This document shows, piece by piece, positions 1,666 to 20,328 of a DNA stretch of 20,480 bases. Where the stretch lies: contig SKWP01000294.1 in assembly GCA_007128865.1 (NCBI GenBank), positions 1-20,480 of the forward strand. Direction: 5' to 3'. Numbering within the stretch: position 1 is the stretch's first letter; the number at the start of each line of letters is the position of its first letter. This DNA is from Paracoccaceae bacterium. Its GTDB lineage: Bacteria; Pseudomonadota; Alphaproteobacteria; Rhodobacterales; Rhodobacteraceae. A model generated the notes under the pieces. That model was not told the DNA's origin and ran no database searches. It was given only the letters and a program-made list of their open reading frames with translations. The position numbers were made by a program, and so were the translations under genes.

Positions 1666-4434
1666 TCAACGCGCAAGCCAGAGCGAAATCCTGTCCTGAT
1701 TTGCCTCGATCCAGCCCCTTGCGACCTCGGCATGCGCTGCCCCGCCTTCGGATGACGCGAGCACCCATTGATTGACGTCCGCATTGGAAAAACTCACCCT
1801 CGACAGCATCTCGGCAGCCAGAGGATAGGTTTCGGCAAGGTAGGATCCGTACGCCACATGGACCTCGACCGGTGGGAAACCGCACGCAGCGCCGCCGTGC
1901 TGTAGCGGACGCAAACAAGCTTTCCCTCCGGAATCATCATCCGACAGGCGGACAAGATCGAACGCGGCGTGAATCCAGTCCGGCTCATAGCCGTAGAACA
2001 CCAGATCCCGACCCGAGGAAACATACTGGCGCAGCCGCGCCTTGAAGATCGTTTCGGAATAGACCGCAAAGGTCCACAGATCCGAAAGGCCGGCATCTGC
2101 CAGCGCGTTTTCCAGCAACCGGGTCGAGATCCAGCCCGGCGCACCGACCCAGATCTCGCCCCGGCCATCACCGTTGCTGTCGAACCTTGCCGCGATCGCG
2201 GGGTCGGCGAGGTCCGAGAAATGTTCCACCTGAAGGGCTTGCGCCGTCTCGGCAGGCAGGTAGAGACCCTGCAACCCGAGATAGGGCGCCGCATTGAGCC
2301 GGACCCTGCCTTGGCCGAAGACATAGCCTGCCGCCATTTCCGGCTGGTTCTGAAGCCAGAAATCCGGATGCACATCAAAACGCCCGTCCGGATCGGCCAG
2401 CTCGGAAAAGATGGTTGCCACCTCGGCCCGGCGGACGTCGACCGAAAGGCCCAGTTCGCGCTCCATCACATCGGCCAGAATATGGGCAATGATCGCACTG
2501 CTGTCCCAGTCAAACCGGCCGATGACGATATCGGAACGCGATGCCCCGAAGACGCCCGCAGCCTGCCCGGCAAAGCTGTCGGGACGCATGACGCGCCCGA
2601 AATCACGATCCCTGATCTCGGTGACCGATGTCGGCAGGAAGATCAGCGCACAGACGAGCAGGCCGCTGCAGGCGTAATAGATCACGCGAAAGGAATTCTG
2701 GCCGCCGCCGCCTTCGAATCGGTTCAGCGCACCGTTTTCCGCCCGGTAGCGCGTGGCACGATCATCGGGCAACGCATGCACTTCGTTCGTTGCAACGACA
2801 CGGGACGGCAGATAATAATCGCGCCCCATTTCCCGAAACGGCTGCTGCAGGCGCAGGATGTGCTTCCGAAAGCCCTGGACATTGCTGCGCTCGTAGTCGG
2901 AAATGGTGAAGATCAGCAGGAAGCAGCCGGCCGAGAAGGCATAAAGGCCGATCTGCCCGAAAAAGCTGTCCGGCCTCAGCAGGGTGAGAAACAGTATGCT
3001 GCTGCCGCCGGTGATCCACAGCGCGAGCTTTTCACCGATCGAAAGCCGGTCGCGATGGATCGTGAACCACAGATCGAAGCTTCGCAGCAGCCGCCGCCGC
3101 TCGCGCGGGGCCTTTTGCGAAAGCGCGGTCAGCTCGATACGCAGGCTTTCCGCGATCCGGTCCTTCACCTGTGCCTGGTCCTCGTATTCAAGGTCGATGA
3201 GGCCGCGGAACACGGCATCGATCTGATCATCCCGTGCAGCTTCTGTCCGGGCATCGGTGCCGTCGACGCGCAGATCCAGAAGGTCTCGGGTAAAGACCGC
3301 GCGCTGATCGAGCTCGGCCGCACGCCGGCTCGATACGCGCGACAGAACGAAACCTGACAGAATGGCAAAGACACCGGCAATCAGCGCCAGCATCTCGGGC
3401 AGGACCGGGACCTCCAGCCTTGGCGGCAGGACGGATGCAACGGCGACATAGAGCGTTCCGACAAGCGCGAGCACAATCGCATTGTTTGACTGGTACATCC
3501 CGTGCAGGCTGAGGTTCGAGAACAGGATCAGGGTCAGACCGAACGCGGCAAGGGCGGATACCGGCTCGTCAAAGAACAGGTAGAGCATCACCACGGACAG
3601 CGCGGGCGAGAAATACGGCAGCGAAGTGAGCGTAAGCGACCGATACTCGGCGAATGCCCATGTCCATGTTATCTCGGCGACAAGATAGGTTCCGATGCCG
3701 ATAAGCGCGCACAACAGCAGAACCTGCGTATCGAAGGCATAGAACAGCAGACTCTGTCCGGTTCCGAAGGTCAGGCCGCCGACCAGAAGCAGGGCAACAA
3801 GGTTTGCTATCGAGATCGCAACAAAGGTTCCGAACACCTTGGAGCCCTGGATATCACGAAACCGCCCTGCACCGTTGATTGCGAAAGGCAGATAGAACCC
3901 CGATCCGATCGCGGCAAGAAACGCAAAGATGATCTCGAAGCCGCCGGTGCTGTCGGTCCTGGTCATCTGTGCCAGACCGATCGAGATTGCGCCGAAAAAG
4001 GCAACCGCAACAAGCGCGAATTCGAGCCGGTTGAGGCTGCGGGCCTTGTCCGGCGCGAATACGCGCATTGCAAAGACCGCGATCAGGGGCCAGCTGAAGG
4101 CGATGATCGTGGCCTCGACCTTTGCCGAACCGTACAGCGCCCGATAGAAGCCATAGTACCAGGCGGCAAGGCAGACCCCGGAAATCGCGGATTGCCAGGC
4201 TCCGTAAAGGCTGCGGCTATCGGTCAGCAGGCGGATGATATCCCGGCTCCGCAGCGTGGCAATTGCCAGGCTGGCGATAACCGAAATCACCCCGGCAACG
4301 ATATAGACCTCGAGATAGCTCGCACGTTCGCCGATCTGGCTGATCAGTATCGGCTTCAGGGACCAGAAGCCAACCGCAATTGCCGCCGCCGTCGCAACCA
4401 GCGGCAGGGCGTGTTGGACGTCGGTCTGTTTCAT
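1666..4434 (-). CDS. Fusion of a DMT/EamA permease with a ProX/OpuAC-type betaine-binding domain
   Basis: A single uninterrupted frame of 922 residues. Residues ~8-154 and ~166-309 are two EamA repeats (ten helices, DMT superfamily). Two more hydrophobic segments follow (~319-335, ~346-365), then a charged linker (~366-467), two helices (~468-486, ~493-510), a second linker (~511-580), a last helix (~581-601) and a binding-protein domain (~634-920). That domain follows E. coli ProX: FDSNGDGRGE and APGW match FDTNGDGKADL and NPGW, FYGYEPDW matches YYTWTPYW, and the ends are alike. Aromatics W643, W693, W768, Y816 and W820 could form a betaine-type cage. With 15 predicted helices and the N-terminus inside, the domain would be periplasmic. 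EamA proteins are normally ~300 residues without a binding protein. I chose ATG 4434; a TTG at 4452 would add six residues. Substrate and direction are unknown; uptake or sensing of a quaternary amine is inference. No frameshift or codon-use break is obvious at the junctions. Confidence 0.85.
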   Translation of the reverse strand: MKQTDVQHALPLVATAAAIAVGFWSLKPILISQIGERASYLEVYIVAGVISVIASLAIATLRSRDIIRLLTDSRSLYGAWQSAISGVCLAAWYYGFYRALYGSAKVEATIIAFSWPLIAVFAMRVFAPDKARSLNRLEFALVAVAFFGAISIGLAQMTRTDSTGGFEIIFAFLAAIGSGFYLPFAINGAGRFRDIQGSKVFGTFVAISIANLVALLLVGGLTFGTGQSLLFYAFDTQVLLLCALIGIGTYLVAEITWTWAFAEYRSLTLTSLPYFSPALSVVMLYLFFDEPVSALAAFGLTLILFSNLSLHGMYQSNNAIVLALVGTLYVAVASVLPPRLEVPVLPEMLALIAGVFAILSGFVLSRVSSRRAAELDQRAVFTRDLLDLRVDGTDARTEAARDDQIDAVFRGLIDLEYEDQAQVKDRIAESLRIELTALSQKAPRERRRLLRSFDLWFTIHRDRLSIGEKLALWITGGSSILFLTLLRPDSFFGQIGLYAFSAGCFLLIFTISDYERSNVQGFRKHILRLQQPFREMGRDYYLPSRVVATNEVHALPDDRATRYRAENGALNRFEGGGGQNSFRVIYYACSGLLVCALIFLPTSVTEIRDRDFGRVMRPDSFAGQAAGVFGASRSDIVIGRFDWDSSAIIAHILADVMERELGLSVDVRRAEVATIFSELADPDGRFDVHPDFWLQNQPEMAAGYVFGQGRVRLNAAPYLGLQGLYLPAETAQALQVEHFSDLADPAIAARFDSNGDGRGEIWVGAPGWISTRLLENALADAGLSDLWTFAVYSETIFKARLRQYVSSGRDLVFYGYEPDWIHAAFDLVRLSDDDSGGKACLRPLQHGGAACGFPPVEVHVAYGSYLAETYPLAAEMLSRVSFSNADVNQWVLASSEGGAAHAEVARGWIEANQDRISLWLAR

Positions 4435-4639: not shown

Positions 4640-6172
4640 TCAGCGGCGCCCGCCGTCGGCTGCGAGCCGGTCCCAGGCGCCTGCGGCAGTGCTGCCAAGG
4701 GTGTGTTTCATGATCCGCTGGCTGGGCGTACGTGCGAAACCCTCGACAATCCGGATGTAGCGCGGCAACTGATAGCGGGCGAGGCGCGGTGCAAGCCATT
4801 CGGCCAGCTCGGCCGGGTCGAGCCGGGCGCCGGCACGCGGCTGGACATGCAGCACCGCCTCCTGCTCGCCCACCTCGGCAGCGGCACCGGTGACGGCACA
4901 ATCCTCGACATCGGGGTGGGTGGTCACGACATGTTCGATTTCCCAGGCCGAGACGTTCTCGCCGCGGATGCGCAAGGCATCGCCCTGCCGGCCATGAAAC
5001 CGCAGCAAGCCGCCCTGGTCGAGAGAGCCGATGTCGCCGGTGTGCAGCCGACCGCCGCGCAGGGTGCGCGCCGTGGCCTCGGGGTTCAAGTGATAGCCGT
5101 CGAAAAATGCACCGGGATCGGCGGTTTCCACGACGATTTCGCCACGCATCCCGGCCGGCAGCGCGCGGCCGGTCGTGTCGCGAATGCTGATGTCGAACCA
5201 GGGCAGCGGCTTGCCGACGACGCCGCCGGTGCTGCCGTCCGACACGGTGGTGATCGAGGACATCTCGGTCATGCCATAGCATTCGTGGATCGCAAGGCCC
5301 CAGCGGCTGCGGGCGGCGGCGAAAACCTCTGCCGTGCAGCCTCCGCCCCAGAGGATGCGGACCCGGTTGGCGCGTTCTTCCGGGCAAGGCGGCTGTTTCA
5401 GAAGAATCTGCAGGATGCCGCCAAGGTAATGCACATGCGTTGCCCCGCTTGCGGCCACCTGGGGCCAGAAGCGGGTGGCGCTGAAGCCGCCGGTCACGGC
5501 AAGCTCGACCCTGGCCAGCCCCGGCAATCCGAGCATCTGCGCCCCGCCCACGTGATAAAGCGGCTCCCACAGGAACAGCACGTCGCCGGGCTGCGCAGCG
5601 GTCACCCGCAGCACGCCTTCGGCGGCGATGCGCAGCATGCGGTGGGTGACGCGCACGCCCTTGGCCGGGCCGGTGGTGCCCGAGGTATACATCAGCGCTG
5701 CCAGCGCCTCGGGCGCGGGCAGCGGCGGCAGGCCTTCGGTACCGGCGGCCGGCAGCGCCGCAAGCCCTGCCCCGCCTTGCAGCACGGCAGGCACCCCGGC
5801 GCCGCTGGCGGCAATTTCCGGCAACAGGTCCGGTTCGGCGATCACAAGCGCCGGGGCGGAATGGTCAAGAACATGGCGCAGCCCGTCGCCGCGGGCCTGC
5901 GCATTGACCGGCACCCAGACCAGCCCCGCACGCCCCAGGGCGAGGATCACCAGCACCGCCTCGCGCGAATTGCGCAGCATCACCGCCACCCGGTCGCCCG
6001 GAACCAGCCCCCGCGCCAGCAGCCCGCCCGCAAGCGCGGCGGTTTCCCGGTCAAGATCGCCGAAGCAGAGCGGCACCCCGTCGAAGCGGGCATAGATGCG
6101 CGCGGGATCGCTGCGGGCGATCTCGGGCAGCGGGTCGAGGAAGCCGCCGGGCGGCGGCAGCGTTTCGGTCAC
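4640..6172 (-). CDS. AMP-forming acyl-CoA ligase, CaiC-like
   Basis: Cytoplasmic class I adenylate-forming enzyme of 510 residues: ATP plus a carboxylic acid gives an acyl-AMP, then an acyl-CoA. The P-loop-like motif YTSGTTGPAKG is at 162-172, YGMTE at 299-303, the ATP-binding Asp in HTGD at 377-380, the hinge region GRQGDALRIRGEN at 394-406 and the catalytic lysine in QRIMKHTL at K489. Overall layout and several stretches (PGAFFDGYHLNPEAT, FWPQV...LLKQPP) resemble E. coli crotonobetaine/carnitine-CoA ligase CaiC more than long-chain fatty acyl ligases. The start is a GTG at 6172 overlapping the hydratase stop as GTGA (6169-6172), so translation is probably coupled. It is the last gene of the leftward operon. 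The true acid substrate is not known; a betaine-like or short polar acid is inference from CaiC likeness. Confidence 0.88.
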   Translation of the reverse strand: MTETLPPPGGFLDPLPEIARSDPARIYARFDGVPLCFGDLDRETAALAGGLLARGLVPGDRVAVMLRNSREAVLVILALGRAGLVWVPVNAQARGDGLRHVLDHSAPALVIAEPDLLPEIAASGAGVPAVLQGGAGLAALPAAGTEGLPPLPAPEALAALMYTSGTTGPAKGVRVTHRMLRIAAEGVLRVTAAQPGDVLFLWEPLYHVGGAQMLGLPGLARVELAVTGGFSATRFWPQVAASGATHVHYLGGILQILLKQPPCPEERANRVRILWGGGCTAEVFAAARSRWGLAIHECYGMTEMSSITTVSDGSTGGVVGKPLPWFDISIRDTTGRALPAGMRGEIVVETADPGAFFDGYHLNPEATARTLRGGRLHTGDIGSLDQGGLLRFHGRQGDALRIRGENVSAWEIEHVVTTHPDVEDCAVTGAAAEVGEQEAVLHVQPRAGARLDPAELAEWLAPRLARYQLPRYIRIVEGFARTPSQRIMKHTLGSTAAGAWDRLAADGGRR

Positions 6173-6933
6173 TTCTGCCCCCGGCGGGCAAGAAAGGCCT
6201 CCATCATCCGTGCCGGTTCGCCGGTGCCATAGGCCTCGGCCTGAATGCGGGCACCGGCCTCCAGCGCCTCGCGGAAGGACGCCTCGGTCAGCTCGCGAAA
6301 CCGCTGCTTGTTCAGGCGCATGGCCACCGGTGGCTTGGAGGCGAGGTCCGTGGCCAGCGCCAGGGCAGCCGGCAGCACCTGTTCAGCCGCAACAAGGCGG
6401 TTGATCAGCCCCAGCCGATGGCATTCTTCGCCCTCCAGCAAGCGGCCGGTCAGGGTCAGTTCGACCGTGCGCGCCAGTCCGATCCGGTCCAGCATCAGCC
6501 AGGGCCCGGTGGTGCTGGGAATGCCGGCATCGATCTCGGGCTGGCCCATGCGCACCCCGTCATGCCCGACCCGCAGATCGCACAGGAGCGCAAACTGAAA
6601 GGCCGAACCGGCCGCGACGCCGTTCAGGGCCGCAACCGAAGGCTTGTCGAGATTGCGCAGCGCGCCATAAAGCTCGCCCCATTCGGCGATCCATTCCCGG
6701 GCGCGGTCAGTGTCGAAGCCATGCGCCTCGCCCAGATCCTGCCCGGCACCAAAGGCGCGCGTGCCGGCGCCGGTCAGCACCACCGCACCGATACCCGGCT
6801 CGGCATTGGCCGCGCCCAGCGCCGCCACCAGTTCCTGGCGCATCGGCCGGTGCCAGGCGTTCATGACCTCGGGCCGGTTGAGGGTGATCAGTCGGACCGG
6901 GCCGCGTGTTTCGGTCAGGATGAACTCGGGCAT
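6169..6933 (-). CDS. Enoyl-CoA hydratase/isomerase (crotonase family)
   Basis: Cytoplasmic crotonase-fold protein of 254 residues, the normal family length. The oxyanion-hole segments are FGAGQDL (61-67) and GVAAGSAFQFALLCDLRVG (105-123). Glutamates corresponding to rat mitochondrial hydratase E144 and E164 are kept (E133 in GQPEI, E158 in TVELTLTG), so hydratase chemistry is plausible. A good ribosome-binding site (GAGGAAAG) precedes the ATG at 6933. It starts 22 bp after the TauE-family gene and overlaps the ligase by 4 bp. In carnitine metabolism CaiD and CaiC form the same pairing, but no CaiB-type CoA transferase or CaiA dehydrogenase is present, so that pathway is not shown. Likely role: hydrate or isomerise the CoA thioester made by the neighbouring ligase. 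Confidence 0.9.
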   Translation of the reverse strand: MPEFILTETRGPVRLITLNRPEVMNAWHRPMRQELVAALGAANAEPGIGAVVLTGAGTRAFGAGQDLGEAHGFDTDRAREWIAEWGELYGALRNLDKPSVAALNGVAAGSAFQFALLCDLRVGHDGVRMGQPEIDAGIPSTTGPWLMLDRIGLARTVELTLTGRLLEGEECHRLGLINRLVAAEQVLPAALALATDLASKPPVAMRLNKQRFRELTEASFREALEAGARIQAEAYGTGEPARMMEAFLARRGQK

Positions 6934-6955
6934 GGCAGGGCTTTCCTCGCTGCGT

Positions 6956-7696
6956 TCACATGAGCCCGCGAACGATCAGAAGCACCGCGGCGGCGCCCGA
7001 GATCGTCAGCAGGAAGGGGCGAAAGCGGGTGTCGAACCGGGCCTGGGTGCGCGCGGCGATCCACAGGCCGAACAGCAGCGGCGGCAGCATCAGGAAAGCC
7101 AGGACAAGGTCCTGCATCGTTCCGAAACCGGCCAGGTAGAGCCCGGCCAGCGACATGATGCAGCCGATGGAAAAGAAACCCGCAAGTGTCGGCCGGGCAG
7201 CGCGGGCGGCGCGACCCTGATAGACCAGCGCCATGGGCGGCGCCCCGACCGAGGTGATGGTGCCCATGGTTCCGGACAATGCCGCCATGGCCATCATGTT
7301 TGGCCGGGTAAACGGCAGGGGCCGACCGAACAGGGAAATCAGCACCCCTGCCCCGACCATGAGCCCGAAGACCAGCGAGAAGGATACCGTATCGGCCAGA
7401 ACCGCCAGCAACCCCACCCCGGCCATCACCCCGGGGACGCGCCCCAGCGATCCCAGCCCGACCTCGGGCCAGACGATGCCCTGCCGTTCCGCAAGCGCCG
7501 TCCAGCTGGCGGTAAAGAACCCCATCCAGATACAGGGCACGGGCACGAACTGGGGTGCGACCAGCGCCAGCAGCGGTGCGGCCATGATGCCGAAGCCCAT
7601 GCCGAGCCCCGCCTGAACCACCGCCGCCACGGTGATGATGGCAAAGACCGCGGCAAGAACCAGGGGCGAAGGCAGAGCGGTGAAAAACGCCTCCAC
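6956..7696 (-). CDS. TauE/SafE (TSUP) family anion exporter/permease
   Basis: Polytopic inner-membrane protein of 246 residues with about eight hydrophobic segments arranged as two repeats. The first begins with AAVVQAGLGMGFGIMAAPLL and the second with ALSGTMGTITSVGAPPMALV, both typical of TauE/SafE proteins. Members have been linked to export of sulfite, sulfoacetate and related organic or sulfur anions, but many have no assigned substrate. Its GTG start (7696) directly follows the dctM stop codon (TGA at 7699-7697) with no base between, so translation should be coupled to the TRAP genes. Position inside a catabolic operon suggests release of an anionic end product or by-product. A sulfur-containing product is only one possibility. 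Confidence 0.88.
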   Translation of the reverse strand: MEAFFTALPSPLVLAAVFAIITVAAVVQAGLGMGFGIMAAPLLALVAPQFVPVPCIWMGFFTASWTALAERQGIVWPEVGLGSLGRVPGVMAGVGLLAVLADTVSFSLVFGLMVGAGVLISLFGRPLPFTRPNMMAMAALSGTMGTITSVGAPPMALVYQGRAARAARPTLAGFFSIGCIMSLAGLYLAGFGTMQDLVLAFLMLPPLLFGLWIAARTQARFDTRFRPFLLTISGAAAVLLIVRGLM

Positions 7697-9010
7697 TCAC
7701 CCCCCCGGCCGTTGTCGGATGTTCTCGGGAAGCCAGGTCGCGATTTCGGGAAAGGCGATCAGCACGAAAACCATCAGAACCATGATCATGAACATCGGGA
7801 AGGCAGCCTTCGAGATGTAGGTCATTTCATGTTTGGTCATGCCCTGGAGCACGAACAGGTTGAAGCCGATGGGCGGCGTGATCTGCGCCATCTCGATCAC
7901 CACCACGATGAAGATCCCGAACCAGATCATGTCGATCCCGGCCTGACGGATCATCGGCTCGACGATGGCCATGGTCAGCACCACCGAGGAAATCCCGTCA
8001 AGGAACATGCCGAGGATGATGTAGAAGACCAGAAGCGCCATCAGCAGCTGGAACGTCGTCAGATCGAGGCCGTCAATGAAACCGGCCAGTGCCCGCGGAA
8101 GGCCGGTAAAGCCCATCGACAACGACAGGAATGCCGCCCCGGCAAGGATCAGCGCGATCATTGCCGATGTCCGGGTGGCGCCAAGCAGGCTTTCCAGAAA
8201 GGTCTGCCAGGTCAGCGTTCCCTGTGTCGCGGCCAGGATCAGCGCCCCGATGACCCCGAATGCCGCGGCTTCGGTGGCCGTGGCATAACCCAGATACATC
8301 GAGCCGATCACCACCAGTATCAGGATCACCACGGGGATCAGCGAACGCGAATTCCTGACCTTCCACAGAAAGCTCGTTCGGGGTTCGGCCGTGGGGTTGA
8401 AATTGCGCGACAGGCTGGCGCGGATGGCCACATAGGCCATGAACATGCCCGCCAGCACCAGCCCGGGAAAGACGCCCGCCATGAACAGCTTGGTGATCGA
8501 TTCATTGACCGTCACGCCATAGACGATCAGCGCCAGCGAGGGCGGAATCATCAGCCCCAGCGTGGCCGCCCCGGCCAGCGTGCCGATCACCATCGGTTCG
8601 GGATAGTTGCGCTTGCGCAGTTCGGGGATCGACATCTTGCCCACCGTCGTGAGCGTCGCCGCCGAAGAGCCCGAGACCGCCGCAAACACCGTGCACCCGA
8701 CGATATTGGTATGCACCAGCCCCCCGGGCAGGCGCGCGAGCCAGGGCGACAGGCCGCGGAACATGTCTTCGGACAATCGCGTTCGATACAGGATCTCGCC
8801 CATCCATATGAACAGCGGCAGTGCCGTCAGTGTCCAGGACGAGGTCGAGCGCCACATCACCGTTATCATCGAATCACCCGCCGGCCGCGTGGTGAAAAGC
8901 TCCATTCCCACCCATGCCACGCCGACCAGCGCCAGCCCGACCCAGACGCCCGAGCCCAGCAGCAGGAAAAGCACGAAGAGAAAGATCGCAATCGGGGCGA
9001 GTTGTTCCAT
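7697..9010 (-). CDS. dctM: TRAP transporter large permease subunit (DctM family)
   Basis: Inner-membrane ion-driven permease of a TRAP transporter, 437 residues, the usual DctM length, made almost wholly of hydrophobic helices. Family stretches are ALPLFIWMGEILYRT, VFAAVSGSSAATLTTVGKM, LGLMIPPSLALIVYG, FLDGISSVVLTMAI and QITPPIGFNLFVLQGM. It works with DctQ and the periplasmic DctP to import a carboxylate-bearing solute using a Na+ gradient (family knowledge). The ATG at 9010 is 12 bp beyond the dctQ stop, with a G-rich sequence just upstream as possible ribosome-binding site. The symbol is the family name; C4-dicarboxylate specificity is not implied. Confidence 0.95.
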   Translation of the reverse strand: MEQLAPIAIFLFVLFLLLGSGVWVGLALVGVAWVGMELFTTRPAGDSMITVMWRSTSSWTLTALPLFIWMGEILYRTRLSEDMFRGLSPWLARLPGGLVHTNIVGCTVFAAVSGSSAATLTTVGKMSIPELRKRNYPEPMVIGTLAGAATLGLMIPPSLALIVYGVTVNESITKLFMAGVFPGLVLAGMFMAYVAIRASLSRNFNPTAEPRTSFLWKVRNSRSLIPVVILILVVIGSMYLGYATATEAAAFGVIGALILAATQGTLTWQTFLESLLGATRTSAMIALILAGAAFLSLSMGFTGLPRALAGFIDGLDLTTFQLLMALLVFYIILGMFLDGISSVVLTMAIVEPMIRQAGIDMIWFGIFIVVVIEMAQITPPIGFNLFVLQGMTKHEMTYISKAAFPMFMIMVLMVFVLIAFPEIATWLPENIRQRPGG

Positions 9011-9022
9011 GGTCGTCGCCCC

Positions 9023-9556
9023 CTATTCCGTCTGCGCCGGGTCGCCCGGGTCACCCTCGGTGCCGGAACGGCCGGTAAAGATCATGCGGATCAGATTGTC
9101 CCACAGGCAAAGCGTCAGCAAGGATGCGCCGATCACCATCACCAGCTGCGGTATCCAGAGCGGAGTTGCGTCCTGCCCCTGGCTGACATCGCCCAGCAGC
9201 CGCGACCAGTACACGGCATTATAGGCGTAGCGCAGGATGTAGGTCGCCACCAGTGCACCGATCGCAAGGCACCATATCTCGCCCCAGCGGCGGAACCGCC
9301 CGAGCGCAGTCAACCCCAGCGTGACGCGGATGTGCGAACCGGAGTTGAGCGCATAGGCAAATGCCATGAACGAGGCGCCGGCCATGGCGTAACCGGCATA
9401 GTTGGAGGCGCCGGGTATGGTAAGCCCGGTCCAGCGCGCCACCATCTGCGCGGTGATCAGCAGCAGGATCGTGACGAGAAACATCGCCCCGATGTAGCCG
9501 CCGATCAGATAAAGCGTGTCGAGCACACGCCGGACAAGGCCGAGGGCCCGGGTCAT
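9023..9556 (-). CDS. dctQ: TRAP transporter small permease subunit (DctQ family)
   Basis: Small membrane subunit of the TRAP transporter, 177 residues with four hydrophobic helices, typical for DctQ. The helix-2/loop region SGSHIRVTLGL matches the conserved G-x-H-I-R-V/V-D segment of the family. I start at ATG 9556 because GGAG lies six bases before it. A TTG at 9571 in the same frame would add five residues and would itself overlap this ribosome-binding site. It lies between dctP and dctM and is probably translated at a lower level than dctP, given the strong hairpin between the two genes. Confidence 0.92.
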   Translation of the reverse strand: MTRALGLVRRVLDTLYLIGGYIGAMFLVTILLLITAQMVARWTGLTIPGASNYAGYAMAGASFMAFAYALNSGSHIRVTLGLTALGRFRRWGEIWCLAIGALVATYILRYAYNAVYWSRLLGDVSQGQDATPLWIPQLVMVIGASLLTLCLWDNLIRMIFTGRSGTEGDPGDPAQTE

Positions 9557-9592
9557 GGCCGTCTCCGTCAATGCGGGGTCGGAAGGCGCAAT

Positions 9593-9616
9593 GGGGCGGG
9601 GTAACGACCCCGCCCC
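9593..9616 (-). promoter_or_regulatory. Strong intergenic hairpin between dctP and dctQ
   Basis: GGGGCGGGGT (9593-9602) and ACCCCGCCCC (9607-9616) are perfectly complementary: a 10-bp, nearly all-GC stem with a 4-nt loop (CGTT on the transcribed strand). It starts 14 nt after the dctP stop, and no T-run follows. Such hairpins after a binding-protein gene often stabilise the upstream message and reduce read-through, giving more binding protein than permease. Here that is inference; the stem itself is plain in the sequence. Confidence 0.65.
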
Positions 9617-9630
9617 GAGCGCTGCAAGGG

Positions 9631-10608
9631 TCAGTTACCGGCGCGATAGGCCTCGATCACGGCGCGGCCGGTGTCGCCGGCGTTCTGGAGCCATTCCTCG
9701 GTCATGATGGCGCCGACCTCGCGCAGCCCCTCCATCAACTCGTCACCGGCGCGCTGCACGATCATGCCGCCTTCGCGCAGCCCGTCGAGGGTGAAGTTGG
9801 TATAGGCAATGGAGCGTTCGAGCCCGGCCGCCTTGGCTTCGGCGGCACAGTCGCGAATGGCGGTCTGGGTCGCTTCGTCCAGAGCCGCCCAGGCCTGCTT
9901 GTTGGCGAAGATGATGTTGCGCGGCAGCCAGGCGTCCACCTCATAGAAATGCGTCAGGCTTTCCCAGACCTGGCTGTCATACCCGGTTGCGCCGGATGAG
10001 ATGAAGCTCTCTGCCACGCCGGTGGCAAGCGCCTGGCTCAGTTCGGCAGCTTCGATCTGAACCGGCCGCATGCCGGTCAGCTCGGCCATGCGCGCGGTGG
10101 CCGTGTTGTAGGACCGGAAGCGGATGCCTTCCATGTCGGCCACCGAGTTGATCTCGCGCTTGAAATAGAGGCCCTGCGGCGGCCATGCCACCGAGTAGAG
10201 ATAGACGAGGTTCTGCGCGTCGAGGATTTCGACCATGGCGGGACCGGCCGCTTCCCACAGCCGCTCGTGATCCTCGAAAGAGGTGGCAAGGAAGGGGATC
10301 GAGTCAATCCCGAACATCGGGTTTTCGTTCTGATGCGCCGAGATCAGCCGCTCGCCGATCGGCGCCTGGCCGGTCTGAACCGCACGCTTGATGTCGTTTC
10401 CGGCAAACAGTGAGCCGTTGGGATGGGTGACGATATTGATTGCCCCGCCGGTGGCCTGGCCGACGCAGGCGCCGAAATCGGCCGCATTTTCGGAATGGAA
10501 GTTGGTCGCCGGATACGCCAGCGGCAGATCCCAGGTTTCGGCCGCGGCCGAGGCCGCGCCCACCGCGGTGAGCGCCGTGGCTGCCATGAGTGTCTTGATC
10601 GTCCGCAT
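9631..10608 (-). CDS. dctP: TRAP transporter periplasmic solute-binding protein (DctP family)
   Basis: Periplasmic binding protein of 325 residues. It starts with a clear signal peptide (MRTIKTLMAATALTAVGAASAAA, cleavage probably before ETWDLPLAYP). GIRFRSYNTATARM carries the family arginine that usually clamps the ligand carboxylate, and AELSQALATGVAESFISSG is the typical DctP segment after it. The ATG at 10608 is chosen because GGGAGA precedes it and because it gives the signal peptide; an upstream in-frame start at 10677 would place 23 polar residues before it and overlap the dehydrogenase gene. It follows the dehydrogenase by 31 bp. The substrate cannot be read from sequence; a carboxylate such as an amino acid or betaine derivative would fit the neighbouring enzymes. 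Confidence 0.95.
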   Translation of the reverse strand: MRTIKTLMAATALTAVGAASAAAETWDLPLAYPATNFHSENAADFGACVGQATGGAINIVTHPNGSLFAGNDIKRAVQTGQAPIGERLISAHQNENPMFGIDSIPFLATSFEDHERLWEAAGPAMVEILDAQNLVYLYSVAWPPQGLYFKREINSVADMEGIRFRSYNTATARMAELTGMRPVQIEAAELSQALATGVAESFISSGATGYDSQVWESLTHFYEVDAWLPRNIIFANKQAWAALDEATQTAIRDCAAEAKAAGLERSIAYTNFTLDGLREGGMIVQRAGDELMEGLREVGAIMTEEWLQNAGDTGRAVIEAYRAGN

Positions 10609-10639
10609 CTTCGTTCTCCCTGTCGGTTGCGGTTTGTCG

Positions 10640-11941
10640 TCAATAGAAACGCGAAGGCGCATAGGGCGCAAGGTCAATGTTGGGCCTGCGGCCGGTTATG
10701 AGTTGCGCCAGAAGCTGTCCGCTGCGCGGTCCTCCGGTCAGACCGATGTGGTGGTGACCGAAGGCGAGAAAGGCGCCATCCACCCCGGGAACCGGCCCGA
10801 TGAGCGGAATCGAATCGGCCGGCGCAGGCCGGTGGCCCATCCATTCGGTGCAGGATTGCCACGTCAGACCAGGAAAGGCCCGGGCCACCTGACGCCTGAG
10901 CAGGGCCAGCGGTGCGCGCGAGGCGGGCGCCTGCAGACCGCCGAATTCAAGAACCCCGGCGATTCTGATCCGCCCCTCCATGGGCGTCGCCACGAACTTG
11001 CCCGCCGCCACCATGCAGGGCGCACGCAGCATCCTGTCCGGCTCCCACAATTCCAGATGGTAGCCACGCTCGCTTTCCAACGGCACCTTGAGCCCCAGTT
11101 TCGCGGCCAGCGACCCCGACCAGGCGCCGGCGGCGACAACCACGGCATCGCATGGCAGGGTTTCGGCCCGGCCGTCCCGGCCCCGCAGGCGCAAGCCGAC
11201 GACGCGGCCGCTGTCGCGGGCAACGTCGGTGACCTCGGCGGTCCGCAGCACGCCGCCGCTGGCAACCACATGATCGGCCAGCGCGCGCACATAGGCACCC
11301 GGGTCGCTGATGCGCCCGTGATCGGGCATTCGGACGCCGAAGCCGATGCCAGGACCAAACGCCGGGTCGTACCCGCGCAGGCGATCGCCCGCCATCTCTT
11401 CCATGGCGAAACCGAAGCCCTTGCGGATATCCCAGCCGAAGGCATCCGCGTCATAGGCGCTGCGGTCCGGGTAGAGGTACAGGTAATCCGAGGGCACCAC
11501 ATAGCGTTCGGCGCCGGTGCCGGCGGCAAGCGCCTGATGATCGGTCAGGCTGTCACCGATCAGCGGGTACAGCGCAGCGGCGATGCGACGGGTTTGCCCT
11601 TCATTGGCGTGGCGCAGGTAGCGGATCAGCCAGGGCGCCAGCCGCGGCAGATAGCGCCAGCGCAGAAACAGCGGCTGGTCGCGGTCAAGCAGCATCCTCG
11701 GCGCCCTTGCGACCAGCCCGGGCACCGTCACCGGCACCACCGAACAGGAAGCAAGCACACCGCCATTGCCGAAAGATGCCCCCTCGGCCGGCCCGGACCG
11801 GTCAATCAGCTCCACCCGGAGCCCGTAACGCTGCAGCCACACCGCCGTGGCGACCCCGACGATCCCCGCGCCGACCACTGCGACCGTCCCGGTCACCGCC
11901 GGCACAGCCCCCGTGGATTCCATGATCGCGGTTTCGGTCAT
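10640..11941 (-). CDS. FAD-dependent D-amino-acid dehydrogenase-like oxidoreductase (DadA/DAO family)
   Basis: Flavoprotein of 433 residues that would oxidise an amino acid, probably of D-configuration or with a secondary or tertiary amine, to an imine and then a 2-oxo acid. The N-terminal dinucleotide-binding motif is [10 protein letters not shown] (20-29), ending in an acidic residue near D47. [21 protein letters not shown] matches the DadA segment after it; [10 protein letters not shown] and the C-terminal [18 protein letters not shown] are the other FAD-contact regions. The protein is soluble or membrane-associated, with no signal peptide. The ATG at 11941 overlaps the preceding stop by 4 bp (ATGA); a second in-frame ATG six codons on is possible. 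Being between an epimerase-type enzyme and a ThDP enzyme supports a role as the oxidation step. Sarcosine- or hydroxyproline-type substrates cannot be excluded. Confidence 0.88.
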
Positions 11942-13080
11942 GCTGCTTCCCGCGTCACGCTTCGCAAGCTGTAGCGGGCAAGCCGCCCGGGATCGACGAC
12001 AATTCCCAGCCCCGGGCCCTGCGGCACCACGACGCGCCCCTCGCGGACAGGAAAGGGTTCGGCAAGGATGTCTTCGACAAGGTAATGGCGCGCCTGATAG
12101 AATTCACAGCCAAGACTGATCGCCGGGGTTGCGGCGATCATGTGCGCGCCGGCAAGATGGCCGAGCCCGGTTTCGAACATGTCGCCGCCATAGGCCGTCA
12201 ACCCCGCGGCCGCCGCCATTCCTGCCACCGCCTGGGCACGCCTCGGCCCGCCGGCCTTCATCACCTTGACCGACACGCCGTCACAGATGCCCTCGGCGAT
12301 GGCGCGCAGCATGTCCTCGGGGCCAAAAACGCTCTCGTCGGCCAGAAGCGGCACGTCAATGGCTTCGCGCAGCCGCCGCATCAGGCCGAACTGCGATGCC
12401 GCCACCGGCTGTTCGATGAAACCGGGCCGAAAGGCTGCAACCTCGCGGACACAGGCAGCAGCTTCGGCCGGCCCGAGCCCCTGATTGTAGTCCACCCGGA
12501 TGTCCAGACCGGGATGATCCCGCCGCAAACGCTCCATCCGGTCGAGATCAAAGCGGTGGCCGGCCACCCCGGCCTTCAGCTTGACGATGCCGACACCGTC
12601 GGCCACCAGACGTGCGACCAGCGCCAGATCGGCGTCGAAGTCGGGGTCGGCCAACGAAACCGACAGCGGGATTTCAGCCTGCGCACAGCCGCCAAGCAGC
12701 GCCCAGACCGGCACGCCCGCAATCCGCCCGGTCAGGTCCAGCAGCGCCGTTTCGAGCGCCGCCTTCGCCTCGGTACAATGTGCGACGGCGCGGCAGGCAT
12801 CGGCGGTGATGTCGGCTGCCCGGGCCAGCGGGCGGCCCAGCACATGCGGGCGCATGTAGCGGTCGAGCGCGGCGAATGAAGCCTCGGGCGACCCGGTGAA
12901 CGGCGCCCAGCAGGCCGCCTCGCCCCAGCCTTCGCAGCCACCCTCGGCCGTCAGCCGAAGCACCACGACCTCGACTTCGGCCTCGACCCGGCCGATACCG
13001 TGATCGCGCCGGGAAACCACCGGCAGTGACAGATGCCACAGATCGAAACCGATGATCCGCTGCGCGAGATCGGCCGTCAT
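11938..13080 (-). CDS. Enolase-superfamily enzyme, muconate-lactonizing (MLE) subgroup; epimerase, dehydratase or cycloisomerase
   Basis: Cytoplasmic (beta/alpha)7-barrel enzyme of 380 residues. The catalytic set of the MLE subgroup is complete: K167 and K169 in VKLKAG, metal ligands D197 (RVDYN), E223 (IEQP) and D248 (LADES), and the opposite lysine K272 (SVKVMKAGG). Two lysines facing each other allow 1,1-proton transfer (racemase or epimerase), dehydration or cycloisomerisation. The C-terminal [15 protein letters not shown] and [12 protein letters not shown] are typical of the subgroup. There is no catechol or muconate gene nearby, so muconate cycloisomerase is unlikely. Adjacent DadA-like and TRAP genes suggest an amino-acid or betaine epimerase, as with hydroxyproline-betaine epimerase clusters of marine alphaproteobacteria (inference). 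The ATG at 13080 gives a 4-bp ATGA overlap with the upstream gene; an ATG at 13089 would add three residues. Confidence 0.88.
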
Positions 13081-14777
13081 GCGATCCATTCCGACACCGG
13101 CGCCGCGGCCTCGTGCAACGGCTGGCTGATCACATCCACCAGGGTCGGGCCATCGGCGGCGATGGCCGCCCGCAGCGCCGGCTCCAGCGCGTCGGGCGTG
13201 TCCACCCGCCAGGATTGCAGCCCATAGGCAGCGGCGACCGCGGCATGATCCGTGCGCGAGAAATCGACATTGTAATACCGCTTGCCGAACCCCGAATCCT
13301 GCCCGGCCTTGATCCAGCCGAAGGCGGAATTGGAAAACACCACGATGGTGATCGGCATCCGGTGCCGGACCAGTGTTTCCAGCTCGCCGACGCAGAAGCC
13401 GAACGAACCGTCGCCCGTAAGCGCCACGGTCTTGACCCCGGGGCGGCCGACATGGGCGCCCATCGCCGCAGCCACGGCATAGCCCAGCGCGCCATGCGCC
13501 CGGTTCGAGAATACCTGCCGCCCGGCCCGCCGCAGCCGGTACTGGGCCGACATGTACGGGCATGGCGTGCCCGGATCGGCCACCACCACGGCATCGTCGT
13601 CCAGCAGCCGCGACAGTGTGGCCATGACCCGCTCGGGCCGGACCGGGACCGCATCGCAGGCGGCCAGCGGGGCCAGATCATCGAGCTTCGCATTCCAGGC
13701 GGCCCGCGCCCGTGCAGCGCCGTTCTGCGCCGCCAGCGGGCCGCGGGTTTCGAGTTCCGCCACCAGCGCCTCGAGCGCCAGCCGCGCATCGGCAACGATG
13801 GCGACATCGGTGGGATAATTCGCGCCGATCACCATCGGATCGCTGTCGACATGGATCACCCGTCGCCCCGGCGGCGGCGAGCGCCAGCGTTCGGTCGTCA
13901 CCGACCCGGCCCGACAGCCGATGAACAGCACCAGATCGGCCCCGTCCACGACTGCCCGCGTTGCCGGGTGCCCTCCGTTGGAACCGACCACGCCCACCGC
14001 ATGCGGCGCGGTTTCGGCAATCGCCCCCTGCCCCGAAACCGAGGTCGCCACCGGCAGGTCCAGCAGTTCCGCCAGCCGCGCCAGCGCCGCCTCGGCCCCG
14101 GCGATCACCGGCCCGCCACCACAGACCGCCACCGCCGCGCGTGCATTTGCCAGCAGGTCTGCCGCCTCGCGGATGGCGGCGGGATCCGGTGCCGCCGGTT
14201 CGGCCGGAAAGCTGCGGTGGCGCGGGTCGGCCCAGATATCCTCGGCCCCCACCGGGGCCTTCTGCGTATCGAAGGGCAATGCCAGATGCACGGCGCCCGG
14301 CCGGCCCGTTGTCATCGCGCGAAACGCGGCGCGCACCATGGCCGGCAATCGCGCCGGCTGATCGAGCGAGGCGTTCCACTTGGTCAGCGGCCGGAACAGC
14401 GCCGCCTGGTCGAGTTCGGTCAGCGGATAGCGCCCGCGCGATGCCGTGCTTACATCGGTGGTGATGGCCAGGATCGGGATCGAGCTTTCATTGGCCTCGA
14501 CGACCCCCGGCAGGATATAGGTCGCGCCACCACCCGAAGGCCCCTCGCATACGCCGGGTTTGCCGGTCACCCTGGCATAGCCGTCGGCCATGTAGGCCGC
14601 ATGCCGTTCGTCCCGGGTCAGCAGATGGGTCATGCCATGATCGAGCCGCGCCAGCGCATCGTAGAACGGCAGGGTGGTGTCACCGCAAAGCCCGAAAACA
14701 TGCGTGACGCCATGCGCCTGAAGCATCCGCACCATGGCCTCGGCACCGGTGATCTCGTTGGTCTGGGCATTGGCCAT
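13077..14777 (-). CDS. Thiamine-diphosphate-dependent enzyme, acetolactate synthase-like (substrate unknown)
   Basis: Cytoplasmic ThDP enzyme of 566 residues with the usual three domains: pyrimidine-binding (~1-175), central (~195-345) and pyrophosphate-binding (~380-560). The cofactor-activating glutamate is E57 in [19 protein letters not shown]. The metal and diphosphate motif begins GDG at 455-457 and ends FSNSAFG: the metal-ligand asparagine is kept (N483) but the residue before it is S rather than the usual N. No FAD-binding role can be judged. Candidates are a 2-oxo-acid decarboxylase, a carboligase or a C-C lyase. Following a DadA-like dehydrogenase in the same operon, decarboxylation of the resulting 2-oxo acid is the simplest role (inference). 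It is the first gene of the leftward operon. The ATG at 14777 is chosen by family alignment; the frame is open upstream to 14894 but that stretch crosses the promoter region and the gntR start. The ribosome-binding site is weak. Confidence 0.88.
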
Positions 14778-17598: not shown

Positions 17599-20328
17599 AT
17601 GGACCTTGTCCTGATCCTTGGTGTTCTTGCGGCGTTCTTCGTCGTGATCGGCTTTGGCCAGCCGCTGGCCGACCGTTTGCGGCTGCCGTTCACCGTTCTT
17701 CTGGCCATGCTTGGCATCCTGATCGGCTTCGGGGCCGGATGGGCGCTGCGCACCGAGGTGACCGATACGCTCGACCCGGTGGCGCGCTCGATCCTCGACT
17801 TTCCGGTCAGCAGCCAGGTGTTCTTGTATGTGTTCCTGCCGACACTGCTGTTTCAGGTCGCCTTGATGCTGAACCTGCGCCGCATGCTGGACGACTGGGT
17901 GCCGATCCTGGTGATGGCGGTGGTGGCGGTGGTGGTTGCCACATTCTTCATCGGCGGGGCGCTGTGGCCGCTGGCCGGGCAGCCGCTGCTGGTCTGCCTT
18001 CTGGTCGGGGCGATCGTTGCCACCACCGACCCTTCGGCCGTGGTCGGCATCTTCCGCGACATCGGGGCGCCGCGGCGGCTGTCGCGGCTGGTGGAGGGCG
18101 AAAGCCTGCTGAACGACGCCGCCGCGATCGCGCTGTTCGTGCTGTTTGCCGGGCTGTTGCTGCCCGGCGCGCAGGAACCCGGCGTAACGGTGCTGCTGGG
18201 CACCTTTGCGACCCAGCTCGGGCTTGGCGCGGTCGCGGGTTTCGTGGTGGCGCGCATTGCCGTGGCCGCGATGGACCCGCTGGGCGGGCACCGGATGGCG
18301 CAGGCCTCGATCAGCATCGCCCTGCCCTATGTCACCTTCATCGTCGCCGAACAGGTGTTGCAGGTTTCCGGCGTGGTGGCGGTGGTGGCGGCAGGAATGA
18401 CGCTGGCGCTGAACGCACCGGCGCGGATGCCGCCGCAGCACTGGGGATTCCTGCGCGACATCTGGGAGGCCCTGGCGCACTGGGCCGGCGCGCTGATCTT
18501 CCTGTTCGCGGCGATCCTGGTGCCGCGGCTTCTGGACGGGGTGACCTGGGAAGACGTCGGGCTGGTGGCGGTTGTCGTGGCTGCGGCGCTGGCGGCGCGG
18601 GCGGTCATCCTGTACGGGCTGTTGCCGCTGCTTGGCCTGATGCGGCTGTCACCACCGATCAGCGGCGGCTACAGGTTCGTCATTCTCTGGGGCGGGTTGC
18701 GCGGGGCGGTGACGCTGGCGCTGGCGCTGGCAGTGACCGAAAGCCGCACCGTGCCACCCGATGCACAGCGGCTTGTCGCGGTGCTGGCCACCGGCTTTAC
18801 CCTGTTCACCCTGCTGGTGCAGGGCACAACGCTGCGCTGGGTGATCCGCTGGCTGGGCATCGACCGCCTGCCACGGATCGAGGCCGCGCTTCAGCATCAG
18901 GTGGTCGCCGTCGCGTTGCAGACCGTGCGCGAGGAAGTCGCCGAAACCGCCCGCCGCCACGACCTGCCGCGCGAGATCGTCCGCTCGGAGGCCAAGAGCT
19001 TTGCCGAGCGGCTCGACCGCGCCGTATCGGAGGCCGAAAAGGCGCAGGAAATCCTGGATCGCGACCGTCTGACACTCGGCCTTGTCACGCTTGCCGGCCG
19101 CGAACGCGAACTGATCCTGGAAGGCTTCCGCGACCGCATTATCTCGGCCTGGCTGGTGGAACGGATGCTCAGCGATGCCGCGCGGCTGATCGAACGCACC
19201 CGCGCCGGCGGCCGAGGCGCCTATCGCAGCACCGCTCGGGCCAATATCGCCTATGGGCGCAGCTTTGCCATGGCGCGCTGGCTGCACCGCTGGTTGCGCA
19301 TCTCGCGCCCGATGGCGGCGCTGGTGGGCGCGCGTTTCGAGGTCTTGCTGACCACGCGCATGATCCTGCGCGATCTGGGCGATTTCGTCGATACCAAGAT
19401 CCTGCGCATCCACGGCCGAAGGGTCACCGACCTGCTGCACGAGGTGCTGTCGCGCCGCGCCGACGAGGTCGACCGCGAGATCAGCGGGCTGCGGCTGCAA
19501 TACCCCGGTTTTGCCGAACAGCTCGAACGCGCCTTCCTGCGCCGTCTGGCCCTGCGGCTGGAGGAACGCGAGATCGAGATCAGCCATGACGACGGGCTGA
19601 TCGGCGCCGATCTGTTCAACAGCCTGATGCGCGACATGCGCCAGCGGCGCGCGGCCATGCAGACCCGCCCGACGCTGGATCTTTCCTTGCAGAAGCGCGA
19701 GATGGTAGCCCGGTTCCCGCTGTTTGCCGGCCTGTCGCCGCGCCAGCAGCGCCGGCTTGCCCGGTCGCTGGTGACGATCTATGCCGAACCGGGCGAAGTG
19801 CTGCTGCAGCGGGGCGAGCCGGTCCGGGCGGTGTTCTTCATCGCCTCGGGGGCGGTCGAGCGCGACATCGCCGGGCACACCCGGCAGATCGGCAGCGGCG
19901 AGATGTTCGGCGAGATCGCGCTGCTGGCCGGCCATCGCAACCGCCGCGGACGGGTCAGGGCAATCACCCATTGCACGTTGCTGCGGCTGGACGAGGCGCG
20001 TTTTCTGAAGCTGTGCCAGCGCCTGCCCGAACTGCGTGCGGCGGTCATCGCATCTGCCTCGGCCCAGGGGCAGGACGCCGGATCGGTCATCGCGCGGATC
20101 GAGGGGCAGGCCGAGGCCGCGACCGGGGCAGCACCCGCAACCGGCCCGACAAGGCACGACGATGCCCCGGAGGCCGAAAGCCCGACGGCAACGGCCCGCG
20201 AACCCGAACCGCCGCGAGAAACCGGTGACGAGCCCACTGCCGACACAGCCGCTGATCATGCCGCCGCACAACCGCCGGCAACCGAAGACGAACCGACCGA
20301 GCCGGAGAGGCAGGCCGCTTCCCGCTGA
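17599..20328 (+). CDS. CPA1-family Na+/H+ antiporter with C-terminal cyclic-nucleotide-binding-like domain
   Basis: Inner-membrane cation:proton antiporter of 909 residues. About twelve hydrophobic helices fill residues 1-420, with TDPSAVVG at 143-150 and EGESLLNDAAAIALF at 166-180; the Asp of the ND pair (D173) is the expected ion-binding residue of CPA1 antiporters. A long, charged, mostly helical cytoplasmic region follows (~425-700). A cyclic-nucleotide-binding-like domain covers ~703-815, with FGEIALLAGHRNRRGRVRA (770-788) in the phosphate-binding-cassette position. The tail (~835-909) is rich in Ala, Pro, Glu and Thr and probably unfolded. The layout recalls SOS1-like exchangers. It is unlinked to the catabolic locus and likely serves pH or Na+ homeostasis. 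The ATG at 17599 is the first usable start; no ribosome-binding site is evident. A weak promoter-like pair, TTGCAT (17531) and TAAGAA (17553), lies upstream. Confidence 0.92.
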   Translation: MDLVLILGVLAAFFVVIGFGQPLADRLRLPFTVLLAMLGILIGFGAGWALRTEVTDTLDPVARSILDFPVSSQVFLYVFLPTLLFQVALMLNLRRMLDDWVPILVMAVVAVVVATFFIGGALWPLAGQPLLVCLLVGAIVATTDPSAVVGIFRDIGAPRRLSRLVEGESLLNDAAAIALFVLFAGLLLPGAQEPGVTVLLGTFATQLGLGAVAGFVVARIAVAAMDPLGGHRMAQASISIALPYVTFIVAEQVLQVSGVVAVVAAGMTLALNAPARMPPQHWGFLRDIWEALAHWAGALIFLFAAILVPRLLDGVTWEDVGLVAVVVAAALAARAVILYGLLPLLGLMRLSPPISGGYRFVILWGGLRGAVTLALALAVTESRTVPPDAQRLVAVLATGFTLFTLLVQGTTLRWVIRWLGIDRLPRIEAALQHQVVAVALQTVREEVAETARRHDLPREIVRSEAKSFAERLDRAVSEAEKAQEILDRDRLTLGLVTLAGRERELILEGFRDRIISAWLVERMLSDAARLIERTRAGGRGAYRSTARANIAYGRSFAMARWLHRWLRISRPMAALVGARFEVLLTTRMILRDLGDFVDTKILRIHGRRVTDLLHEVLSRRADEVDREISGLRLQYPGFAEQLERAFLRRLALRLEEREIEISHDDGLIGADLFNSLMRDMRQRRAAMQTRPTLDLSLQKREMVARFPLFAGLSPRQQRRLARSLVTIYAEPGEVLLQRGEPVRAVFFIASGAVERDIAGHTRQIGSGEMFGEIALLAGHRNRRGRVRAITHCTLLRLDEARFLKLCQRLPELRAAVIASASAQGQDAGSVIARIEGQAEAATGAAPATGPTRHDDAPEAESPTATAREPEPPRETGDEPTADTAADHAAAQPPATEDEPTEPERQAASR

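What the first reader, a model, noticed from the sequence alone, without database searches (positions are those of the whole stretch)
1666..4434. Single-polypeptide DMT permease fused to a betaine-type periplasmic binding domain
One continuous frame joins a complete ten-helix EamA permease to a complete ProX/OpuAC-like domain, through extra helices and two cytoplasmic linkers. DMT carriers are not known to use binding proteins, whereas ProX-like domains normally serve ABC transporters. The count of about 15 helices puts the binding domain in the periplasm, and the ligand-cage aromatics look kept (W643, W693, W768, Y816). This could be a new class of binding-protein-assisted secondary transporter, or a transporter-like sensor.
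Basis: partly seen in the sequence, partly recalled or inferred. Interest (0 to 1): 0.82.

Follow-up and report, generated by a model that had tools for sequence, protein, structure and literature searches.

The report
Carrier fused to betaine-binding domain
A single bacterial membrane protein joins a ten-helix metabolite carrier to a betaine-type capture domain that normally feeds ATP-driven pumps, which points to a little-known way of importing scarce nutrients, although transport itself has not been shown.

The parts
1666..4434 (-). Whole gene: 922-aa DMT permease - membrane linker - ProX/OpuAC fusion protein (P0001)
   Evidence: homologues
3490..4407 (-). Residues 10-315: EamA/DMT permease, ten helices, two five-helix repeats
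2542..3489 (-). Residues 316-631: linker with about five membrane helices and two cytoplasmic stretches (about 376-465 and 517-580)
   Evidence: helices (575-631 under pLDDT 50); loop charges; no independent family found
1669..2541 (-). Residues 632-922: ProX/OpuAC-type binding domain, inferred to lie outside the membrane
2506..2508 (-). W643, aligned with position 16 of the choline-binding protein chain 2reg (ChoX W43 by recalled numbering)
2356..2358 (-). W693, aligned with position 63 of 2reg (ChoX W90 by recalled numbering)
2131..2133 (-). W768, aligned with W140 of the ProX chain 1r9l
1987..1989 (-). Y816, aligned with W188 of 1r9l and position 178 of 2reg (ChoX W205 by recalled numbering)
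4363..4365 (-). W24 of helix 1, invariant in 29 of 29; possible counterpart of LicB/YddG Trp17 in the aromatic box (inferred from the start of the aligned range)

Best explanation
The gene encodes a one-chain, binding-domain-assisted secondary importer for a quaternary-ammonium or sulfonium compatible solute of the betaine/choline type. Steps: (1) the outer ProX/OpuAC domain, tethered by helix 15, captures the solute in its aromatic cage [fold and cage positions supported by prediction, alignment and conservation; binding inferred]; (2) it docks on the outer face of the DMT permease and hands the solute to the central aromatic cavity [inferred]; (3) the permease releases it inside by gated alternating access, driven by membrane potential or an ion gradient, not ATP [inferred; no ATPase domain in the chain or in the Pfam-scanned neighbours]. 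The linker helices put the binding domain outside and may dimerise or regulate [inferred].
Confidence: 0.55

Rival explanations
1. Transceptor or osmosensor: the outer domain senses a betaine-like solute and the carrier-like part signals or gates inward through the two cytoplasmic stretches.
For: Large charged cytoplasmic stretches (segments 370-468 and 510-585); no shared metabolic neighbours seen; no free-standing relative of the linker found.
Against: No known output domain found in the chain; the cytoplasmic stretches are among the least conserved parts (mean identity 0.33-0.34) while the permease is the most conserved large part.
Confidence: 0.17
2. Exporter (YddG-like) whose outer domain recaptures or monitors the exported solute.
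For: Weak sequence matches to YddG in four of six relatives scanned: NF050091, E 1.2e-5 to 6.3e-4.
Against: All far below the curated cut-off (19-25 of 300 bits), P0048 and P0020 match TIGR00950 slightly better, and the window protein has no such hit at E 0.1. Capture domains outside the cell are known as import devices (general knowledge).
Confidence: 0.12
3. Tethered binding protein that feeds a separate ABC permease in trans, with the DMT part serving as anchor or having an unrelated job.
For: OpuAC domains normally serve ABC importers; 17 of the other 60 genomes encode separate OpuAC proteins.
Against: A mere anchor would hardly keep 66 of 306 permease columns invariant; no ABC component in the seven Pfam-scanned window neighbours or ten flanking ORFs of six loci. 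Whether the host genomes hold ABC betaine systems elsewhere was not tested.
Confidence: 0.07
4. Annotation or assembly artefact: two genes joined by a frameshift or missing stop.
For: The genome is a 67%-complete draft in 491 contigs.
Against: 41 clusters over 800 aa and 8 named genomes with the same fusion; second-position GC is lowest, or once tied lowest, in 19 of 19 blocks of 50 codons along the gene.
Confidence: 0.01

Closest known systems
TAXI-GltS (Bordetella pertussis BP0403/GltS and Lachnospiraceae fusions; PMC12344293)
   Same: Solute-binding domain with, or fused to, a secondary carrier outside TRAP and TTT; rare fusions
   Different: Binding domain is TAXI, carrier is GltS (elevator-like by modelling); here ProX/OpuAC plus a DMT carrier with an extra membrane linker
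LicB choline importer (DMT; PDB 7b0k, 7paf)
   Different: LicB has no binding domain (recalled); no sequence match detected
YddG aromatic amino acid exporter (DMT; PDB 5i20)
   Different: Exporter, no binding domain (recalled); far below the family cut-off
OpuA (Lactococcus lactis; permease-OpuAC fusion, PDB 7ahd)
   Same: OpuAC domain tethered to a membrane protein in one chain
   Different: OpuA is an ABC importer driven by ATP; here the carrier is DMT
ProX (PDB 1r9l) and the choline-binding ChoX (PDB 2reg)
   Same: Fold and aligned aromatic positions
   Different: Free proteins serving ABC importers (recalled); the W188/W205 position is Tyr here
TRAP and TTT transporters
   Same: Binding protein works with a secondary carrier
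   Different: Different binding-protein and membrane families

Membership tests
DMT superfamily (EamA) | Two EamA repeats by sequence | tested here: met
   Two stretches, E 3.6e-4 but below the cut-off for this protein; 5 of 7 fused relatives and 2 of 4 unfused relatives exceed it
DMT superfamily (EamA) | Ten-helix fold, both ends inside | tested here: met
   predicted model and fold match; loop charges agree for most loops, loop 8-9 is neutral
DMT superfamily (EamA) | Transport activity | not testable with these tools
   needs uptake assay
OpuAC/ProX binding proteins (PF04069) | Sequence over curated cut-off | tested here: met
   134.9 against 21.2 bits
OpuAC/ProX binding proteins (PF04069) | Fold and aromatic ligand cage | tested here: met
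   which residues form the cage is recalled
ProX equivalog (NF008334) | Score over equivalog cut-off | tested here: not met
   72.2 against 215 bits
ABC betaine importer (OpuA type) | ABC permease or ATPase domain in the chain or next door | tested here: not met
   none in the chain or in the seven Pfam-scanned window neighbours, nor in ten flanking ORFs from six loci; the rest of the flanks was not scanned
TRAP / TTT / TAXI-GltS | DctM, TctA or GltS membrane component | tested here: not met
   membrane part matches EamA only; the DctPQM genes in the window are separate genes
Binding-protein-dependent secondary transporters (general kind) | Binding domain coupled to a non-ABC carrier in transport | not testable with these tools
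   architecture present; coupling needs assays
LicB choline importers | Sequence relationship | tested here: inconclusive
Membrane sensor proteins | Known signalling output domain | tested here: not met
   whole chain: OpuAC only; linker of 9 members: best Pfam E 0.022, to a family of unknown function
Bestrophin (for the linker) | Fold or sequence match of residues 316-634 | tested here: inconclusive

The most novel reading that the evidence does not exclude
A new class of binding-domain-dependent secondary transporter built on a DMT carrier, which works by gated alternating access and not as an elevator. It would be the first such class outside the elevator folds and would show that binding proteins can be wired onto DMT-type carriers, with choline/betaine-type substrates as the natural bridge.
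Probability: 0.5. Interest if true: 0.88.

Novelty: new variant of a known kind. Interest (0 to 1): 0.76.

Why it matters
Binding proteins give importers affinity and direction, but among secondary carriers only TRAP, TTT and, as proposed in 2025, TAXI-GltS use them. The TAXI-GltS authors suggest that an elevator mechanism may be required and say that further classes would allow the idea to be tested (PMC12344293, Discussion). A DMT carrier fused to a betaine-type binding domain is such a test case, in one chain. The unfused permease relatives are natural controls.

Tried and rejected
Frameshift or assembly artefact: rejected. One database record, P0041 (Promicromonospora thailandica, 586 aa), lacks the domain and has an unrelated tail; the P. 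thailandica contig (L025) has the full fusion.

Another fusion in G025 (979-aa open frame): a separate ChoX-like gene with an open frame upstream, not a fusion.

Sequence link of the permease to a solved structure: none. The first genome-contig scan with one sequence found nothing; the alignment found 8 loci.

Operon logic: flanking ORFs differ between genera; only the three Promicromonospora loci appear to share a neighbour (L21, Pfam-tested in L024 only).

Split versions (permease gene beside a binding-protein gene): not found. The one unfused relative with context, on a Tsukamurella plasmid, has no binding-protein gene among the 25 listed features (the plasmid gene table is incomplete).

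Literature: no paper with EamA, OpuAC and fused together; none with LicB, choline and drug metabolite transporter; none with substrate-binding domain, fused, drug metabolite transporter and permease. The listings shown (12 of 14 papers; 10 of 340; 8 of 20) showed no title on such a fusion. The LicB structure paper is not held. The library is open-licence PMC only.

Full report
OBSERVATION. The minus-strand frame 4434-1666 codes for 922 aa. Pfam finds OpuAC at 635-910 (E 5e-39) and, in the whole protein, no EamA at E 0.01. The permease alone shows two EamA stretches, E 3.6e-4 but below the curated cut-off; of seven fused relatives scanned, five pass the cut-off and two do not. In the own genome (67% complete, 491 contigs) it is the only match.

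IS THE FUSION REAL? Two searches of about 5.8 billion proteins (in each only the roughly 8000 candidates sharing most words were scored) gave 53 clusters in all. Of these 41 exceed 800 aa (P0002 being the window protein itself, P0013 lacking the C-terminal end), and all 41 carry precomputed OpuAC; 26 of the 41 also carry precomputed EamA (my count from the two tables). The other 12 are P0035, P0041 and P0045 (645, 586 and 532 aa, whose tails look truncated or chimeric), and nine proteins of 341-428 aa, P0046-P0054. P0046 looks like a truncated copy of a fused protein (it pairs with P0022 in the tree); P0047-P0054 look like genuine unfused permeases. The alignment scan of genome contigs matched 17 stretches, of which 8 encode relatives: a Rhodobacterales MAG, Tropicimonas, three Promicromonospora, Microlunatus, Gordonia and a Brevibacterium MAG. 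All 8 are single frames of 898-955 aa (open frames also).

DISTRIBUTION. Rare and patchy in the samples drawn. With the permease as query: 1 of 295 genomes of the host's family at E 1e-20, the window's own; 1 of 396 in the order of Promicromonospora panici at E 1e-20; with the permease profile A2 at E 1e-30, 1 of 396 in the phylum of Microlunatus, 3 of 221 in the Promicromonospora family, 1 of 57 in the genus of the Brevibacterium genome and 1 of 59 in the genus of the Gordonia genome. Searches count the centre genome itself; no other genome had it. Among 61 relatives 18 matched the whole protein, but all except the own genome matched only from residue 599 on, that is, the binding domain. None of the five same-genus genomes (71-99% complete) has a match. 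GC3 of the gene is 0.73 against 0.80-0.85 for eight other genes of the window. In a midpoint-rooted tree of 52 permease rows the window protein and the named Rhodobacterales rows fall inside a 32-row group that also holds Microlunatus, Gordonia and Brevibacterium rows; that group's support, 86/96, is not among the strong ones. Together this suggests lateral transfer; the direction is unsure. Whether the unfused forms are ancestral or derived is open: the tree needs three changes of the label and strong branches force two, with P0046 counted as unfused.

CAGE. HMMER alignments place W768 on ProX W140 and Y816 on ProX W188, and W643, W693 and Y816 on positions 16, 63 and 178 of the choline-binding protein 2reg (ChoX W43, W90 and W205 in precursor numbering, recalled). 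That these residues form the ligand cages of ProX and ChoX is recalled; a paper search for the ProX residues gave one unrelated title. W643, W693 and W768 are invariant in 29 of 29; Y816 is Y in 28 and F in 1. In the permease, W24 (29 of 29) lies near the place expected for Trp17 of the LicB/YddG aromatic box described in PMC10654088 (passages); this is inferred from the start of the aligned range, not from coordinates.

CONSTRAINT. Mean identity to the window protein: permease 0.57, helices 11-12 0.53, helices 13-14 0.60, cytoplasmic stretches 0.33-0.34, helix 15 0.32, the stretch after it 0.20, OpuAC 0.39; invariant columns 66 of 306 in the permease and 17 of 291 in OpuAC. dN/dS among three Promicromonospora copies is 0.09-0.26 for the three parts. 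The faster OpuAC may mean drifting substrate preference: NCBIfam scores P0020 nearer the choline model (TIGR03414 E 3.5e-10) and the window protein nearer ProX (NF008334 E 4e-20), all below the curated cut-offs.

LINKER. Residues 316-634 of 9 members gave no Pfam match better than E 0.022, and no free-standing family was found. A bestrophin-like shape appeared weakly and is not claimed.

CONTEXT. Flanking ORFs in the eight loci differ. Ten flanking ORFs from six of the eight loci, scanned by Pfam, gave DUF192, beta-lactamase family, fatty-acid desaturase, ribosomal L21, DUF1707, glyoxalase, TauE, ArsR-type regulator, flavin reductase and one without a hit; the rest of the flanks was not scanned. 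Nothing there points to betaine metabolism. In the window the gene lies about 205 bases behind an acyl-CoA ligase gene on the same strand; the consensus scan shows no terminator-like or promoter-like site between them.

MECHANISM AND RIVALS. Best reading: the outer domain captures a quaternary-ammonium solute and hands it to the DMT cavity, which imports it without ATP. In support, EamA-family carriers are associated with choline and trimethylamine (PMC12155760, passages: a cluster induced by growth on choline holds an EamA-family gene whose top database hits are MttP and LicB), and LicB takes up choline in pneumococcus (PMC13385700, passage). Against: four of six relatives scanned match the exporter YddG weakly, P0048 and P0020 matching TIGR00950 slightly better; unfused relatives show that the permease can exist alone; no gene context helps. 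A transceptor, an exporter with recapture, or a tethered donor for an ABC system are the rivals.

COMPARISON. PMC12344293 (passages, whole Discussion) says that before that work only TRAP and TTT among secondary transporters were known to use binding proteins, adds TAXI-GltS, notes 14 TAXI-GltS fusions among about 10,000 GltS entries, and proposes that an elevator may be needed. It also explains fusion as a tether in bacteria presumably without a conventional periplasm; several carriers of the present fusion are actinobacteria, which fits. DMT carriers are described as working by alternating access with gating helices or symmetry-related movements (PMC6508934 and PMC13342644, passages); that they are not elevators is my reading. 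So this family is not a member of TRAP, TTT or TAXI-GltS, but may work like them.

VERDICT. A real, conserved, rare fusion family; I found no paper describing it in the searches made (open-licence library only). Function is inferred. Interest is high because binding and uptake assays on one chain would bear on an open question about which carriers can use binding proteins.

Noticed in passing
L037 7959-8900 (Tsukamurella tyrosinosolvens plasmid record NZ_LR134455.1): Unfused 313-aa relative of the permease (47% identical) annotated as hypothetical protein, with no binding-protein gene among the 25 listed features around it.
   Followed up: partly
window 4643-14774, minus strand: Run of genes on one strand: acyl-CoA ligase, enoyl-CoA hydratase, TauE/SafE, TRAP DctM/DctQ/DctP, D-amino-acid-dehydrogenase-like oxidase, enolase-superfamily (cycloisomerase-like) enzyme and acetolactate-synthase-like ThDP enzyme, with a GntR-type regulator next to it on the other strand: looks like an uncharacterised catabolic cluster.
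   Followed up: partly
window 2542-3489: Linker with a helix arrangement that Foldseek places, weakly, near bestrophin channels; model confidence too low to judge.
   Followed up: yes
window 2155-2181 (residues 752-760): DxNGDGxGE loop (D752, G757 invariant in alignment A1), also present in ProX, which resembles an EF-hand-type calcium loop.
   Followed up: no
window 17599-20325: 909-aa protein with an Na+/H+ antiporter N-terminal part and a long C-terminal part whose residues 706-825 match the family 2B encapsulin model below its cut-off (43 of 400 bits), perhaps a cyclic-nucleotide-type domain.
   Followed up: no
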